In this document: positions 2,386 to 47,861 of the stretch, piece after piece
Position numbering within the stretch: the first letter of the stretch is position 1
How the letters are laid out: the number at the start of each line of letters is the position of its first letter
Virus record (IMG/VR): IMGVR_UViG_3300033183_000491
Span: 64,001-128,000 of that record
Strand: one strand, 5' to 3'
From: a virus
DNA length: 64,000 bases
Made by a program: the position numbers and the translations under genes
Notes under the pieces: generated by a model
Told to the model about the DNA's origin: nothing
Databases searched by the model: none
Seen by the model: only the letters and a program-made list of their open reading frames with translations

Positions 2386-3351
2386 TTATCCTATTAATTC
2401 CCATCCCCAACTATCACCACTCATACCATCTGCATTATAATCAGTGACAGTTCCTTCGAAGAAGTTTTTAAAACTATCTCCGTTAATAATCCAGTCTAAC
2501 CAGTCTAAAGGATTTGTTTTTACCTTGAAGTTAGGTTTAAGTCCTAATTGAATTAATCGACGGTCAGCTAGATATCTAATATATTGTTTTACTTCTTCTT
2601 TATCTAATCCTTCAATTTGTCCCATCTCGTAAGCTAAGTCAATAACTTTATCTTCTAATTTAACAGCTTGTCGATACATTTTATAAATAGATTTTTTAAA
2701 TTCATCATTTATAATTCGTGGATGTTCTTTTACATATTCTCTAAATAATTGAGTCATTCCTTGAACATGCATTGTCTCGTCTCTAATAGACCATTCAACA
2801 ATTTCGCACATTCCTTTCATTTTTCCAAACCTTTGATAGTTTAATAACATAACAAACGCTGAAAATAGACTCATTCCTTCGTTACATGCAGACTGAGCAA
2901 GAGCCAAACCTAATCCTTTTTTAGTACTTACATCATTTTGTTGCATGAATTCAATTTTGTCACTCATTTCTTTATATTCAAGAAAGGCTCCATATTCTTC
3001 TTCGGGTAGACCAAGGGTATCATTTAAAAGAGCATAACTTCTTTGATGAGTTCCTTCTCGATTTGCAAAACTTAATAACATACTCCTAATTTCATTATTC
3101 TTAAATTTAGGAATAAATAAGTCACAATAGTTTCCACCAACTTGTACATCACTTTGAGTAAATAATCTAAGGATTTGTGTAATGTGATTTTTCTCTTCAG
3201 AAGAGATTTTTCCACCTTTCCATTGATTTACATCTTCAGCTAATTTAGCTTCCCAACTTCCCCAGTGAATTTTTTCATGACTTTCAGCTATTTCCATTGC
3301 CCATGGGTATTTAAACGGTTTATATGTTGTGTTATATTTTAGTAATGACAT
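2386..3351 (-). CDS. nrdB: class I ribonucleotide reductase, small (beta) subunit
   Basis: A 321-residue radical-generating subunit. All six metal ligands of the ferritin-like di-iron site can be placed: Asp68, Glu99, His102, Glu158, Glu192 and His195, with the same spacing as in E. coli NrdB. Tyr106, four residues after His102, matches the radical tyrosine of E. coli NrdB (E-x2-H-x3-Y). It would form the tyrosyl radical passed to the large subunit for reduction of ribonucleoside diphosphates. The gene is intact and free of inteins. It lies between thioredoxin and the C-terminal half of the large subunit. Confidence 0.93.
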   Translation of the reverse strand: MSLLKYNTTYKPFKYPWAMEIAESHEKIHWGSWEAKLAEDVNQWKGGKISSEEKNHITQILRLFTQSDVQVGGNYCDLFIPKFKNNEIRSMLLSFANREGTHQRSYALLNDTLGLPEEEYGAFLEYKEMSDKIEFMQQNDVSTKKGLGLALAQSACNEGMSLFSAFVMLLNYQRFGKMKGMCEIVEWSIRDETMHVQGMTQLFREYVKEHPRIINDEFKKSIYKMYRQAVKLEDKVIDLAYEMGQIEGLDKEEVKQYIRYLADRRLIQLGLKPNFKVKTNPLDWLDWIINGDSFKNFFEGTVTDYNADGMSGDSWGWELIG

Positions 3352-3386: not shown

Positions 3387-4445
3387 TTATCCTTGACAGC
3401 TTAAACATTCTTCAGGGTCAGCAAAATCTTTAAGTCTATCTTGTTCTACCTTTTGACTAACTTTTTCTGCAGAAGCACCGGCATTTGTTCTTAGATAATA
3501 TAAACCTTTTAATTTCTTTTTCCAAGCTCTAATATGAACTGCATTTACAACAGATTTATCAGTTCCAGCGGGAAAGAATAAATTAACACTTTGTCCTTGA
3601 CAAATAAACTCTTGTCTATCTCCAGCATGATCAACAATCCACCTTTGATCTAGTTCGAATGCAGTTTTAAAAACTTCTTTATGCCAATCTGACATATATT
3701 CTAAATGTTGTACAGAACCTTCAGCCAAAATAATTGATTTCCATTGTTCTTTCATCCATTCTTCAATATTATTATCATTTTCTGTGCAATAACTTCTTAG
3801 AACATTTTCTAGATGTGGATTTTTAACTAAGTAAGATCCGACTCTTGTTCTATGAGTATAGGCATTACTTTTCCAAGGTTCAATCGAAGGAGATGTACCT
3901 GCGATAATAGAAGAATTAGCGTTAGGAGCAATAGCTAATAGGTGAGAATTTCTAACATTATGACCAATACCATCCGGGCATTCACCTTTTATTTTAGATA
4001 ACTCTATTGTTTTCTGTTTTGCTTTTTCTTTAATATCCATGAATATACCTTTGTTTGCAGCAACTGCAATACCAGATTCAAACGGGATATTCTTTTTCTG
4101 TAGGTATGCGTGGAATCCCATGGCACCTAAGCCTAAACTTCTTTCAGATTGTGCAGATTTAATTGCTCTTTCTAAAGCTGGAGGTGCGTTATTAACAAAA
4201 TAAGAAATAACATTATCAAGATATTCTATAAGATCAGCAACAATTGATGTATCTTTCCATTCGTCATATTTTTCAATATTTAAAGAGCTTAAACAACAAA
4301 CTGCGCTTCTTTCAGGAGAAGTGCTAAGATGGATCTCGTTGCAATTGTGAACAAGTATATTATTTGCAAAAAAATTACTATTGTCTTTAACAGTTATATC
4401 GAAGACAGTCTCTTTAGCTTCTCTTTTAATTATTTTTAGTCCCAT
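3387..4445 (-). CDS. nrdA: ribonucleotide reductase large subunit, C-terminal half, with split-intein C fragment
   Basis: Residues 1-34 are an intein C-terminal piece: block F (VFDITVKDNSNFFANN) and block G ending ILVHN. They are followed by the +1 Cys of the C-extein. The extein (about 318 residues) starts CNEIHLST, which is the thiyl-radical loop of class I reductases (E. coli C439 and E441). It contains AVCCLSSLN (second active-site Cys region), the radical-transfer tyrosine pair in LYYLRT, and ends CLSCQG, the C-terminal redox CxxC reduced by thioredoxin. Alone it is inactive; it must be joined by protein trans-splicing to the product of 5243-6418. Its first 20 bases overlap the GIY-YIG gene upstream. 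Confidence 0.93.
   Translation of the reverse strand: MGLKIIKREAKETVFDITVKDNSNFFANNILVHNCNEIHLSTSPERSAVCCLSSLNIEKYDEWKDTSIVADLIEYLDNVISYFVNNAPPALERAIKSAQSERSLGLGAMGFHAYLQKKNIPFESGIAVAANKGIFMDIKEKAKQKTIELSKIKGECPDGIGHNVRNSHLLAIAPNANSSIIAGTSPSIEPWKSNAYTHRTRVGSYLVKNPHLENVLRSYCTENDNNIEEWMKEQWKSIILAEGSVQHLEYMSDWHKEVFKTAFELDQRWIVDHAGDRQEFICQGQSVNLFFPAGTDKSVVNAVHIRAWKKKLKGLYYLRTNAGASAEKVSQKVEQDRLKDFADPEECLSCQG
4344..4445 (-). other. split intein, C-terminal fragment (34 residues)
   Basis: Encodes 34 residues ending in the catalytic His-Asn pair (LVHN) and followed directly by extein Cys. The Met start provides a natural C-fragment. It pairs with the N fragment at 5243-5563. By memory it closely resembles the environmental NrdA-2 type split intein from marine metagenomes; I could not check this. 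Confidence 0.9.
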
Positions 4446-5184
4446 ATTTCCTACCTTTTATCCATTCTTCATTATTAAGTATATCAATTTCTTTTTTACT
4501 CATTTGCCTTGAAATTTTAAGTTTTTCGTTAGAGTACCAAACTTTTCCTGATAAAGACTTAGAAAGTTTTTTACTGTGACTATTTGTTCTTTTATATTTA
4601 AAATCATCATCTTTTAAATTATACAAATCTTTCATTGCATTTACAAAACCTTTTAAACCTGATCCGTATTTTTTAAATCTAAATTTTGAATAAGACTTTG
4701 GAAAGCCATAGACTTCTGAACTATATATTTGCCACTTTCTTTTAGGTAATTGACCTTCTTTTTTAAAATAAGAAAAAGCTGCTTCTAATATTTCTTCATC
4801 TGTAAATCCTGTATATGTTGGATTTTTTTCTCCTGAAATTGCAATTGATTTTTTTCTTATCCATTCATCATATTTTTCATCGGGTACTACCCATCCTCCG
4901 TCACCGCCTATAGTCATATTATAGCCATTTTTAAAAGTATCATAATATTCTATATAATACTTTTCTTTTTCTAAGGCTTCCTCTTTAGAACTACATTCGC
5001 AAATTACTTTAGATACTATGTTTTTAGGACTGTGTTTTCTAATTGCTCTATAAAAGTGTGTATCTAATCCTGATTGTGCATTTGTAATATGTTTATGTAA
5101 TCTTTTTGACAACGTTAGTCCTGTATATCCAATATACGACTTATTTGTTTGCTTAAAAGTGTGCATATATATTATATATTTCAA
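4426..5184 (-). CDS. GIY-YIG homing endonuclease inside the fractured nrdA locus
   Basis: A 252-residue protein. The N-terminal GIY-YIG nuclease domain shows the two strands as YIIYMH and SYIGYTG, the catalytic Arg in SKRLHKHI and the catalytic Glu in KYYIEYYDTFKNGYN. Residues after about 110 contain a SGEKNPTYTGF patch resembling NUMOD-type DNA-binding repeats. Near the C-terminus a Trp-rich module ends WIKGRKY, as seen in phage homing enzymes. It lies exactly between the two halves of the broken reductase gene, 58 bases after the N half and overlapping the C half by 20 bases. This suggests it mobilises, or once mobilised, the intein insertion point. The frame appears intact. Confidence 0.88.
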   Translation of the reverse strand: MKYIIYMHTFKQTNKSYIGYTGLTLSKRLHKHITNAQSGLDTHFYRAIRKHSPKNIVSKVICECSSKEEALEKEKYYIEYYDTFKNGYNMTIGGDGGWVVPDEKYDEWIRKKSIAISGEKNPTYTGFTDEEILEAAFSYFKKEGQLPKRKWQIYSSEVYGFPKSYSKFRFKKYGSGLKGFVNAMKDLYNLKDDDFKYKRTNSHSKKLSKSLSGKVWYSNEKLKISRQMSKKEIDILNNEEWIKGRKYGTKNN

Positions 5185-5242
5185 AACGTCTCCTTAAGTC
5201 TGTAAATGAATTTCAATAATAAATATACATCTAGCGATCAAA

Positions 5243-5563
5243 TTAAGAAAAAACTAACTCATCGTCTTCTTTAAGATCTTTAGCTTTTACGTAGCCTCTA
5301 TTTGTAGTGTATACTTTATGATCAGGAGTACAAACTATTTTTTGACCAGACTCTTCGTCTATAATTTCAAGTACTTCCGCGTTTTTACTAATTAATCCTG
5401 CATCAGTAATTTCTTTGTATTCAATTTCTTCTGTATCAATATTGTAAGACAAAACAAAAACTTCTTTTCCTTCATTGAAAAGATTAACAACTTCTTCTAA
5501 TGATATTTGAGAATTTGGAACATTGTCAATTAATACATCAATTTTTGTATCTCCTGTTAAACA
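5243..5563 (-). other. split intein, N-terminal fragment (106 residues)
   Basis: Begins with the splicing nucleophile Cys (CLTGDTKI) and contains the block B TPDH motif near residues 79-82. It ends DDELVFS at the natural stop codon. The insertion point is directly before the reductase catalytic Cys, a highly conserved site typical of inteins. Confidence 0.9.
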
Positions 5564-6418
5564 AAGATTTGAACCGTGAATTTTTAACCCTAAATCTTTT
5601 TGAAATTGTGGGAGATGTCTATTTGCTTCGTCAATAAAATTGACATAAGGCTCACCTGTCCTAAACCTAACTTGTAGTATTCTCTGCCAAAGTTGTCTTG
5701 CATCTATAGAATCTCTAATAGAACCGTCATTCGGATCAATAAGATTCCATTTTTCTCCTTTTAAAACTGCTTCCATAAAATCATCTGTAATATTTACAGC
5801 ATTATTTAGATTAAAGCATTTGCGATTTACATCACCACCAGTTGGAACTCTAATGTTAAGAAATTCAACGATATCGGGATGTGAAATATCAAGATAAGCT
5901 GCATATGAACCTTTTCTTGTTTTTCCTTGTCGATAAGCTGTCATATCGCTATCGACTGTTTTAAGAAAAGGCACTGGACCGGGAGAAATTGTACTATTTG
6001 ACCTAACGTCACTCCAATGTCCTCCAACGCCTCCTCCTTTTACAGACATCCAACGTAACTCATCTGAATGAGAGATTAGTCCTTCAAGAGAGTCATCAAC
6101 ATATGTTAAAAAACAAGAAATAGGTAATCCTCTTGTCGTTTCTCCTGGTTTAGGAGCATTTGACAGAATTGGAGAACTAAACATAAACCAGCCTTTTGAA
6201 GCATAATCATAAATTCTTTGAGCTAATTCTAAATTATTTATATTGTTTTCTTTTGTATAAAGATCACCTGAAAATGCTACAGCTGCTCTGGCAAAACTTT
6301 CTTGAGGAGATTCTTCATAATCATTCATATAATAATCTCTTAGTAAGTTTTTTGAAAAGTCTGTAAGTAAATTATCCCTATCTAAATCTATAGTAATACC
6401 ATAGCATTCTTTTTTCAT
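5243..6418 (-). CDS. nrdA: ribonucleotide reductase large subunit, N-terminal half, with split-intein N fragment
   Basis: 391 residues: about 285 of N-extein, then 106 of intein. The extein has the reductase barrel start, the active-site Cys in PISCFL, the MSVKGGGVGGHWSD loop and the specificity region around RQGKTRKGSYAAYL, and stops at HGSNL. The intein begins CLTGDTKI (block A) and has block B as VCTPDHKVYT. There is no N-terminal ATP-cone, because the barrel signature SCFL appears already near residue 100. Splicing with the product of 3387-4445 would give a reductase of about 603 residues. The dUTPase gene ends 14 bases upstream of its start. Confidence 0.93.
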   Translation of the reverse strand: MKKECYGITIDLDRDNLLTDFSKNLLRDYYMNDYEESPQESFARAAVAFSGDLYTKENNINNLELAQRIYDYASKGWFMFSSPILSNAPKPGETTRGLPISCFLTYVDDSLEGLISHSDELRWMSVKGGGVGGHWSDVRSNSTISPGPVPFLKTVDSDMTAYRQGKTRKGSYAAYLDISHPDIVEFLNIRVPTGGDVNRKCFNLNNAVNITDDFMEAVLKGEKWNLIDPNDGSIRDSIDARQLWQRILQVRFRTGEPYVNFIDEANRHLPQFQKDLGLKIHGSNLCLTGDTKIDVLIDNVPNSQISLEEVVNLFNEGKEVFVLSYNIDTEEIEYKEITDAGLISKNAEVLEIIDEESGQKIVCTPDHKVYTTNRGYVKAKDLKEDDELVFS

Positions 6419-6432
6419 AAATATTCCTTTAT

Positions 6433-6918
6433 TTAATCTGAACTTCCTATCTTGCCTGATTTTCTCCGGGAAGAATCGGTAATATTTAAATATTCGTCTT
6501 CATCGACAATAGAAAATTCATTGTCACATTTAACAACAACAATTTGTACAGGAAGTTTTTTATATGAATCAAGTTTATATTCTTCAGACCCTGTGTTAAT
6601 TAAATTGACAAAAACTTCCCCAGTATATCCACTATCAATTACTCCCGCTCTAACTTTAAGTGGTGTTTTAGTAATCGATCCTCTTTCTTGAATAAGAGCA
6701 ACATAACCTTTTGGAACCTTCATTTTTAATCCTGTTCCAATTAAAGATTTGTGATTCTTAGGTAAAACAGTTTGAGGAAGAATTGTAACACGATCTCCTG
6801 CGTTATATAAATCTAATCCTGCACTCTCTCCATTATATGCAGGAATATAGTCTTTTACATCTATATTATTTATATTTAAAGCTAATTTTAAACTTTCCAT
6901 TAAACAAATATTAATCAT
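6433..6918 (-). CDS. dut: dUTPase (deoxyuridine 5'-triphosphate nucleotidohydrolase)
   Basis: A 161-residue trimeric-type dUTPase. Motif 1 is SAGLDLYN, motif 2 is ERGSITK, motif 3 is AGVIDSGYTGEVFV, and motif 4 is near KLPVQIVV. Motif 5 at the C-terminus (RRKSGKIGSSD) departs from the usual GGFGSTG and lacks the aromatic residue that stacks on uracil. It hydrolyses dUTP to dUMP, keeping uracil out of phage DNA and feeding dTMP synthesis. The start at 6918 overlaps the helicase stop by 8 bases and has an AGAGG-type ribosome site. An internal Met at 6900 lacks one, so the longer form is preferred. Confidence 0.92.
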   Translation of the reverse strand: MINICLMESLKLALNINNIDVKDYIPAYNGESAGLDLYNAGDRVTILPQTVLPKNHKSLIGTGLKMKVPKGYVALIQERGSITKTPLKVRAGVIDSGYTGEVFVNLINTGSEEYKLDSYKKLPVQIVVVKCDNEFSIVDEDEYLNITDSSRRKSGKIGSSD

Positions 6919-8287
6919 CTTTTTTATTTACCTCTTTCCATTTTTCTCTTAATTTCTCTTTCATAGAGTGATTATCTTGAGTAACTACTTCATTTAGTGT
7001 AAGTTCAGTATCATCAAGAATATCAAATTTTGATTTTGCTGTATCGATGTTGATTGGAAAAAGCAAACCATCTCTACCAGCCCTGTTTTTTGCTACGAAT
7101 ATACGTCCTCCACCAGTTGACTTTTCCATAGGTTTTCTACTAATTGAAAGAACAACATCAGCTACTTGAGCTTTTCCATAAGATTCGCCAAGATTTTCCA
7201 AACCAACAACGTCAGATTTTGAAGAATCTTTATTAGCTTGTGAAGCTGTCCAAATAGGAATATTTAATTCAACTGCGAGGTTTCTTAGTTCAGTATATAT
7301 TAATTTTAATTCATGACGTAAAGAGTCATAAGCTTTAGAAGATTTCATAACATCAGCATAGTCAACCGTAACTAGACTTGGTTTAAATCCTTTTAAAGTA
7401 AGTTTTTCAATATGATTACGCAAAGTCATAACTGACGCAGAACCAGTTGGATATTCTTTAATAATAAGTTTTCCTAAATCCATCGATTTATATTTGTCAA
7501 TGACTTCTTGTTTTCTCTCAATGATTTCATTTGAAGGAATATCACATAAGTTCGAATCATATCTCTTACCTGTATCATGTTCTGATAATTCAAATGTATA
7601 GTGAATAACATTTTTACCAGCACGCATAGCTGCACATCCCATTGCTACCAAAAAGTGAGATTTACCAACACCTGTATTAGCTGCAATAACACCTAATTCT
7701 CCTCTTCCAAGACCACCCCTTAAAATATCAGGAGCATCAATCCTATCTAAACCTGTTGGACAAACTTGACGATTAATTTGAACAAAGCGAGCTTCAATAT
7801 CATCAAAGAAATCATGGCCTGCAGTATTAGGCATACCAACAGAAATAGCTTCTTTCATAATGTTTAAAACAGATTCATATTTTTCTGTTTGAATAAGTTC
7901 AACGCTTTGTTCTAGAGCATCGCGAAAAGCTTGTCTTTTACAAAATTCGAGTGATTTATCTTTTACATATTGTAAATCACCCATATCAGGATTTGTTTTC
8001 ATCCTGTGGAGATATTCAATGATTTGATCTCTTAAGACATGGTCTTTTGATTTAGAAAGATCTTCTTTGATAATAGTTATTAAGATTGTAAGTGTTGGAA
8101 AAGTTTTATATTTCTGATAGTATGAGTAATATCTTTCACATAGATAAGAAAGATATTTTAGATCAAAATAGTCTGAACTCATAACTTCGATCATTTGTGC
8201 AGACCAATGAACATCAGTTAACATACTTTGAAAGACTTTTTCTTGAAAAGCTTTTCCAAATTTAGAGAAGTTTTTTTCTTGACTCAT
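6911..8287 (-). CDS. replicative DNA helicase, DnaB/gp41-like
   Basis: A 458-residue RecA-fold hexameric helicase. Walker A is ANTGVGKS at residues 203-210, Walker B ends at Asp309 (LVTVDYADV), and a DnaB-type ENLGESYGKAQVADVVLSI segment follows with the arginine-finger region. The first 150 residues are helical and correspond to the N-terminal domain of T4 gp41/DnaB. It would unwind the fork 5' to 3' and recruit primase, but no primase is in this window. The start codon shares one base with the stop of the 5' nuclease gene (TAATG), so the two are translationally coupled. Confidence 0.92.
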   Translation of the reverse strand: MSQEKNFSKFGKAFQEKVFQSMLTDVHWSAQMIEVMSSDYFDLKYLSYLCERYYSYYQKYKTFPTLTILITIIKEDLSKSKDHVLRDQIIEYLHRMKTNPDMGDLQYVKDKSLEFCKRQAFRDALEQSVELIQTEKYESVLNIMKEAISVGMPNTAGHDFFDDIEARFVQINRQVCPTGLDRIDAPDILRGGLGRGELGVIAANTGVGKSHFLVAMGCAAMRAGKNVIHYTFELSEHDTGKRYDSNLCDIPSNEIIERKQEVIDKYKSMDLGKLIIKEYPTGSASVMTLRNHIEKLTLKGFKPSLVTVDYADVMKSSKAYDSLRHELKLIYTELRNLAVELNIPIWTASQANKDSSKSDVVGLENLGESYGKAQVADVVLSISRKPMEKSTGGGRIFVAKNRAGRDGLLFPINIDTAKSKFDILDDTELTLNEVVTQDNHSMKEKLREKWKEVNKKDD

Positions 8288-47626: not shown

Positions 47627-47861
47627 TATAATTTATCTTTTTAACACGATTTAATCGTTTAAATTGATATTCTTCCTTAGAAGCGATGGAGCGATTCATC
47701 GCTTTTTTTATGAGAGTAAATCGACAAGGTCTTCTTGATCTTGTATATTTAGCACCTCCTTTTAATTCTCCATTATGCTGTTTTAATCTTCTTTCTGGGT
47801 CTGTTGTTATACCACAATACAAAGAATTATCATTACAGATCAAAACATATAAATACCACAA
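47553..47861 (-). CDS. YhbQ/UvrC-type GIY-YIG nuclease-like protein
   Basis: 102 residues with a TTG start preceded by AAGGA. WYLYVLICNDNSLYCGITTD, then PERRLKQHN, then GAKYTRSRRP, then EEYQFKRLNRVKK is the complete small GIY-YIG domain of the YhbQ/YazA family, with catalytic Arg and Glu. The family domain ends near residue 78. The last 24 residues are read from the strand opposite the plus-strand lipoprotein gene (overlap 47553-47626) and are low-complexity, so they are probably a run-on extension. It may be a repair-type nuclease or a host-DNA degrading enzyme. Confidence 0.78.
   Translation of the reverse strand: MWYLYVLICNDNSLYCGITTDPERRLKQHNGELKGGAKYTRSRRPCRFTLIKKAMNRSIASKEEYQFKRLNRVKKINYIIQARQLEELDQLAHLLHPQELLQ
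47681..47709 (+). terminator. intrinsic terminator after the plus-strand lipoprotein gene
   Basis: AAGCGATG and CATCGCTT form a perfect 8-bp stem with an 8-base loop, followed by seven T on the plus strand. It lies inside the coding region of the opposing GIY-YIG gene. Confidence 0.85.

What the first reader, a model, noticed from the sequence alone, without database searches (positions are those of the whole stretch)
3387..6418. Ribonucleotide reductase large-subunit gene broken by a split intein with a homing endonuclease in the gap
The N half ends in an intein N fragment (CLTGDTKI to DDELVFS) and the C half starts with an intein C fragment ending LVHN. Both join exactly before the catalytic thiyl-radical Cys of the reductase. 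Between them is a GIY-YIG endonuclease gene overlapping the C half by 20 bases. This is the fractured-gene arrangement described for environmental phages, here with a GIY-YIG enzyme. Activity of an essential enzyme therefore depends on protein trans-splicing.
Basis: partly seen in the sequence, partly recalled or inferred. Interest (0 to 1): 0.8.

Follow-up and report, generated by a model that had tools for sequence, protein, structure and literature searches.

The report
Intein-split phage reductase gene with endonuclease
A marine phage gene for making DNA building blocks is broken in two by a self-splicing protein (split intein) with a gene-cutting enzyme in the gap; this is a known kind of arrangement, but its relatives show the three-part cassette moving between phages as one unit and leaving the gene broken when the cutter is lost.

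Summary
On the minus strand, the ribonucleotide reductase alpha gene is cut into an N half (285 extein + 106 intein-N aa) and a C half (34 intein-C + 318 extein aa). A GIY-YIG endonuclease ORF lies between them and overlaps the C half by 20 nt. The joined exteins (603 aa) match one full-length RNR alpha model, and the +1 residue aligns with the thiyl-radical Cys. The same layout recurs in independent metagenomic contigs, so it is not an assembly error.

This is a "fractured gene" (Dassa 2009), a known kind. A GIY-YIG-fractured RNR gene (AceL NrdHF) is published, and cultured Yersinia and Klebsiella phages carry fractured nrdA. In my survey 57 of 58 distinct relatives were split, and GIY-YIG was the commonest gap enzyme.

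New here: (1) the cassette moves as one unit, with silent sites much less diverged than in the flanking exteins of the same phages; (2) a near-isogenic pair, L078 (occupied) and L105 (empty), differs by an exact 1,220-nt insertion plus a 4-21 nt co-conversion patch; (3) three lineages lost most or all of the endonuclease yet stayed split. Splicing and cleavage are inferred, not shown. "Essential" is unproven for a phage RNR.

The parts
5564..6418 (-). N extein of ribonucleotide reductase alpha (285 aa)
   Evidence: Pfam RNR lgN/lgC; NF006577 12-283
5246..5563 (-). intein N fragment, 106 aa, class 1 (C1, TPDH block); stop codon 5243-5245
   Evidence: intein_Nterm; relative of solved NrdJ-1 split intein 8ubs, E 5.9e-19; invariant C1, T79, H82
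5185..5242 (-). 58-nt leader between intein N stop and endonuclease start, conserved between carriers; ribosome-binding site AAGGAG at 5190-5195
   Evidence: sequence; alignment, 87% mean column identity
4426..5184 (-). GIY-YIG homing endonuclease gene, 252 aa, TTG start
   Evidence: Pfam GIY-YIG; catalytic residues Y6, Y17, G19, R28, E74, N89 invariant; predicted fold matches I-TevI catalytic domain
4426..4445 (-). 20-nt overlap of endonuclease 3' end with C-half start; the endonuclease tail (EEWIKGRKYG) encodes the C half's likely ribosome-binding site and ATG
4344..4445 (-). intein C fragment, 34 aa, ending LVHN
   Evidence: intein_Cterm; alignment of 12
3390..4343 (-). C extein of RNR alpha (318 aa) starting with catalytic Cys (+1 residue); stop 3387-3389
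2386..3351 (-). intact RNR beta subunit gene, likely partner (context)
   Evidence: Pfam Ribonuc_red_sm E 2.8e-69

Best explanation
A mobile three-part cassette (intein N / GIY-YIG endonuclease / intein C) sits in the RNR alpha gene of a T4-like marine phage, exactly before the codon of the catalytic Cys. The two halves are translated separately; the C half starts inside the endonuclease tail. The intein fragments associate, the class 1 protein trans-splicing reaction excises them, and a 603-aa RNR alpha is restored. The endonuclease cuts intein-free alleles, and break repair copies the whole cassette into them with only short flanking co-conversion. Shown: anatomy, conserved catalytic residues, purifying selection on the cassette parts, horizontal movement of the whole cassette, an occupied/empty near-isogenic pair, and endonuclease loss with retention of the split. 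Inferred: trans-splicing and DNA cleavage themselves, and that the endonuclease drives the transfer.
For: Anatomy and families. Splice residues invariant in 11 N and 12 C fragments. GIY-YIG residues invariant in 15 proteins, I-TevI-like fold. Against the window, silent third-position differences are 0.36-0.41 in exteins but 0.14-0.23 in the cassette for L162, L004, L078, L166, L080 and L087 (Fisher p from 4e-6 to 8e-15); L078 against L080: 0.41 against 0.02, p 1e-31. The older pair window/L088 shows no difference (0.40 against 0.36), so cassette silent sites are not intrinsically constrained. Extein tree: carriers and empties interleave, 8 changes, at least 5 forced by well-supported branches. 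L078 and L105: 99.0% over 3,804 bp, exact 1,220-nt insertion, three mismatches at -1, -3, -4 that match other carriers (TCAAACTTA: 5 carriers, 0 of 107 empties), next mismatch at -22, none downstream to +128.
Against: No splicing or cleavage was measured. The co-conversion patch is short, and no elevated flank identity is seen at 20-codon scale. The direction (gain in L078 rather than loss in L105) rests on the junction bases. Transfer could be by ordinary recombination with the endonuclease as a passenger. dS in exteins is near saturation and imprecise, which is why raw silent differences are also given.
Confidence: 0.88

Rival explanations
1. Gene in pieces without splicing: the two halves fold together non-covalently, as in phage Aeh1 nrdA, and the intein fragments are relics.
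For: Aeh1 nrdA split by mobE is functional without splicing (PMC3653736, PMC2988022).
Against: All splice residues are intact in every relative aligned and intein halves are under purifying selection, omega about 0.1. Lineages that lost the endonuclease keep both intein halves. Without splicing the intein C fragment stays attached directly before the catalytic Cys.
Confidence: 0.06
2. Sequencing or assembly artefact; the real gene is continuous.
For: Metagenomic contig; empty alleles are common (107 distinct junctions).
Against: Same layout in at least eight separate contigs and a related one in cultured phages; the gap holds a 252-aa ORF, not a frameshift.
Confidence: 0.01
3. The endonuclease is a non-mobile passenger or decayed, and the cassette spread by ordinary homologous recombination between phages.
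For: Endonuclease is deleted or truncated in some carriers (L080, L197, L217); very short co-conversion.
Against: Endonuclease catalytic residues invariant and omega about 0.14 among close carriers. Recombination with flanking homology would usually carry longer extein tracts, which are absent.
Confidence: 0.15

Closest known systems
Fractured genes with split inteins (Dassa et al. 2009, NAR 37:2560; NrdA and NrdJ loci of the Global Ocean Sampling data)
   Same: DNA-synthesis gene broken by a split intein with a free-standing endonuclease gene between; mainly phage (own knowledge of the abstract). PMC3653736 reports 7 nrdA and 2 nrdJ cases from that study. The solved NrdJ-1 intein is a relative (8ubs). 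From memory, untested: the published NrdA-2 intein is very similar in sequence.
   Different: The endonuclease here is GIY-YIG rather than the Vsr-like type that (from memory) was found in about half of those loci. The paper itself was not held.
AceL NrdHF split intein (PMC7891396)
   Same: Phage-like RNR gene in fractured organisation with an intervening GIY-YIG endonuclease.
   Different: Beta-subunit gene and a class 3 intein (Ala1); here alpha subunit and class 1.
Yersinia phage TG1 and Klebsiella phage KP13-7 nrdA
   Same: nrdA broken by a related split intein before the catalytic Cys; KP13-7 has a related GIY-YIG enzyme (40% identity).
   Different: TG1 is annotated with an HNH enzyme; KP13-7 nrdA is in more pieces and several parts are annotated as hypothetical.
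Aeromonas phage Aeh1 nrdA-a/nrdA-b with mobE (PMC2988022)
   Same: Homing endonuclease splits nrdA.
   Different: No intein; halves assemble without splicing.
I-TevI (T4 td intron GIY-YIG endonuclease)
   Same: Catalytic domain fold (1mk0, TM 0.85 normalised by target).
   Different: Intron-encoded; the DNA-binding part does not match.

Membership tests
Fractured gene (Dassa 2009) | one conserved enzyme gene in two ORFs that end and start with intein halves | tested here: met
Fractured gene (Dassa 2009) | free-standing endonuclease gene between the halves | tested here: met
   GIY-YIG 4426-5184
Fractured gene (Dassa 2009) | phage DNA-metabolism context | tested here: met
   neighbours nrdB, dUTPase, DnaB-type helicase, T4 gp23 in the record
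Fractured gene (Dassa 2009) | protein trans-splicing restores the enzyme | not testable with these tools
   needs co-expression
Class 1 split intein | Cys1, TxxH block, terminal His-Asn, +1 Cys/Ser/Thr | tested here: met
   invariant C1, T79, H82; H33, N34, C35
GIY-YIG homing endonuclease | catalytic Tyr, YIG motif, Arg, Glu, Asn | tested here: met
   Y6, Y17, G19, R28, E74, N89 invariant; I-TevI fold
GIY-YIG homing endonuclease | cuts the insertion-free allele and promotes its own inheritance | not testable with these tools
   indirect support
Vsr-like endonuclease of fractured genes | Vsr-like domain | tested here: not met
   Pfam gives GIY-YIG only
Aeh1-type gene in pieces | no intein at the break | tested here: not met
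   intein halves on both ORFs

The most novel reading that the evidence does not exclude
Gene fracture itself is a horizontally spreading state. The whole split-intein/endonuclease cassette homes as one unit, and when the endonuclease later decays the host gene cannot rejoin by simple loss: deletions keep the endonuclease tail that carries the C half's ribosome-binding site and start, leaving orphan split inteins with a scar. This would give a directly testable route for the origin of endonuclease-free split inteins.
Probability: 0.6. Interest if true: 0.55.

Novelty: new member of a known kind. Interest (0 to 1): 0.42.

Why it matters
The locus itself is a further example of fractured RNR genes. 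The comparative set around it is more useful: empty alleles, one continuous mini-intein, split with active-looking endonuclease, split with truncated endonuclease, and split with none, all at one codon, plus a near-isogenic occupied/empty pair. That makes the proposed path from mobile intein to permanently split gene testable, and gives natural pairs of split inteins for protein engineering.

Tried and rejected
Group I intron or other RNA element at the break: no Rfam match in the window or in L016, L071, L074, L121, L122. T4-type late promoter TATAAATA before the endonuclease: none between 4300 and 6200. RNA hairpin hiding the endonuclease ribosome-binding site: folds no better than shuffles. 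Intrinsic terminator in the region: none. Long co-conversion tracts: not seen. Finding the NrdA-2 sequence in papers: not found; Dassa 2009 not held. PDB sequence relatives of the endonuclease: none credible, so a fold search was used.

Full report
Observation. The N half (5243-6418) is 285 aa of RNR alpha followed by a 106-aa intein N fragment; the C half (3387-4445) is a 34-aa intein C fragment followed by 318 aa of RNR alpha; between them is a 252-aa GIY-YIG ORF (4426-5184) that starts at TTG, with AAGGAG five nt upstream, and overlaps the C half by 20 nt. In the relative L088 the same start codon is ATG. The two exteins match one RNR alpha model at 12-283 and 283-604 of 604. The residue after the intein aligns with residue 322 of T. 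maritima NrdJ, known as its thiyl-radical Cys. It is the only RNR alpha and the only intein detected in the 239,550-base record, which also carries a T4-type major capsid gene.

The parts look functional. The N fragment keeps C1 and the TPDH block, the C fragment ends HN|C, and the key residues are invariant across 11 and 12 relatives. The N fragment is a relative of the solved NrdJ-1 split intein (8ubs, E 5.9e-19). The endonuclease keeps Tyr6, Tyr17, Gly19, Arg28, Glu74 and Asn89 in 15 proteins; the predicted model (mean pLDDT 80.7) matches the I-TevI catalytic domain. Omega is about 0.1 for the intein N fragment and about 0.14 for the endonuclease among close carriers.

Natural series at one codon. 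At the same junction, IMG/VR contigs show: empty alleles (107 distinct junctions); a continuous mini-intein without endonuclease (L016); large continuous inteins (L074, L121, L122); split plus GIY-YIG (L004, L005, L078, L087, L088, L011, L162, L166); split plus HNH (L083); split with the endonuclease shortened by a 456-bp in-frame deletion (L080, the remaining 300 bp identical to L078); split with only the endonuclease tail left (L197, L217); and split with no endonuclease and no obvious tail (L071 and others). Among 58 distinct relatives of the intein N fragment, 57 are split and 43 hold an ORF of at least 150 aa. This sample is biased toward split forms because the query alignment was mostly split and only the best 80 loci were kept. 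Of 37 distinct gap proteins, 19 match GIY-YIG and 7 match HNH.

Movement as a unit. Between the window and L162, L004, L078, L166, L080 and L087, silent third-position differences are 0.36-0.41 in exteins and 0.14-0.23 in the cassette; between L078 and L080 they are 0.41 and 0.02. In the older pair window/L088 the two are alike (0.40 and 0.36), so cassette codons are not specially constrained; window/L011, also divergent, is intermediate (0.42 and 0.29). On the extein tree, carriers are scattered among empty alleles (8 changes; at least 5 forced). The nearest neighbours of the window by tree path are empty alleles, L093 and L094.

A caught event. L078 (occupied) and L105 (empty, intact ORF) are 99.0% identical over 3,804 bp up to the junction and 98.5% beyond it, with an exact 1,220-nt insertion. 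Near the junction they differ at -1, -3 and -4 and then not until -22; downstream there is no difference until +129. The L078 junction TCAAACTTA is shared with four other carriers and none of 107 empties. The simplest reading is recent gain with 4-21 nt of upstream co-conversion.

Why the endonuclease tail persists. In the window and most relatives the end of the endonuclease overlaps the start of the C half (36 of 43), and its last codons (...KGRKYG...) spell a purine-rich ribosome-binding site and the ATG of the C half. L080, L197 and L217 all keep this stretch. I infer that deletions are tolerated only if they spare it or are replaced by another start signal.

Placement. This is a fractured gene in the sense of Dassa et al. 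2009, which I could not read here and know through citing papers. A GIY-YIG-fractured RNR gene is published (AceL NrdHF) and cultured phages carry fractured nrdA. The finding is therefore real and correctly interpreted, but a new member of a known kind. Splicing, cleavage and biological need for the enzyme remain untested.

Noticed in passing
L191 2647-8177 (Klebsiella phage KP13-7): nrdA is in at least four pieces, with a split intein + GIY-YIG at the catalytic Cys and a further ORF (6668-7639) overlapping both neighbours at a second break; several parts are annotated as hypothetical.
   Followed up: partly
L235 and L236, 5001-6674: The same RNR gene carries two split inteins in a row, the second with +1 Ser and a short gap without endonuclease, so the enzyme would need two trans-splicing events.
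   Followed up: partly
window 5190-5242: The leader before the endonuclease (CTAGATGTATATTTAATATTGAAATTCATTTA in the consensus) is strongly conserved between carriers but has no late promoter, hairpin or known RNA family; function unknown.
   Followed up: partly
window 47631-47858: Second GIY-YIG match in the record (open frame 105 aa, E 3e-16), not part of this locus.
   Followed up: no
L074, L121, L122: Large continuous inteins of a different type occupy exactly the same codon of RNR alpha, so this catalytic-Cys site is a repeated target.
   Followed up: partly
window 2386-3351: RNR beta closely matches a recent PDB entry, 9dws (E 8.7e-131); the metal/radical class of this phage RNR was not examined.
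   Followed up: no
window, whole: TATAAATA (T4 late promoter core) occurs 24 times against 12 expected, in keeping with a T4-like phage.
   Followed up: no
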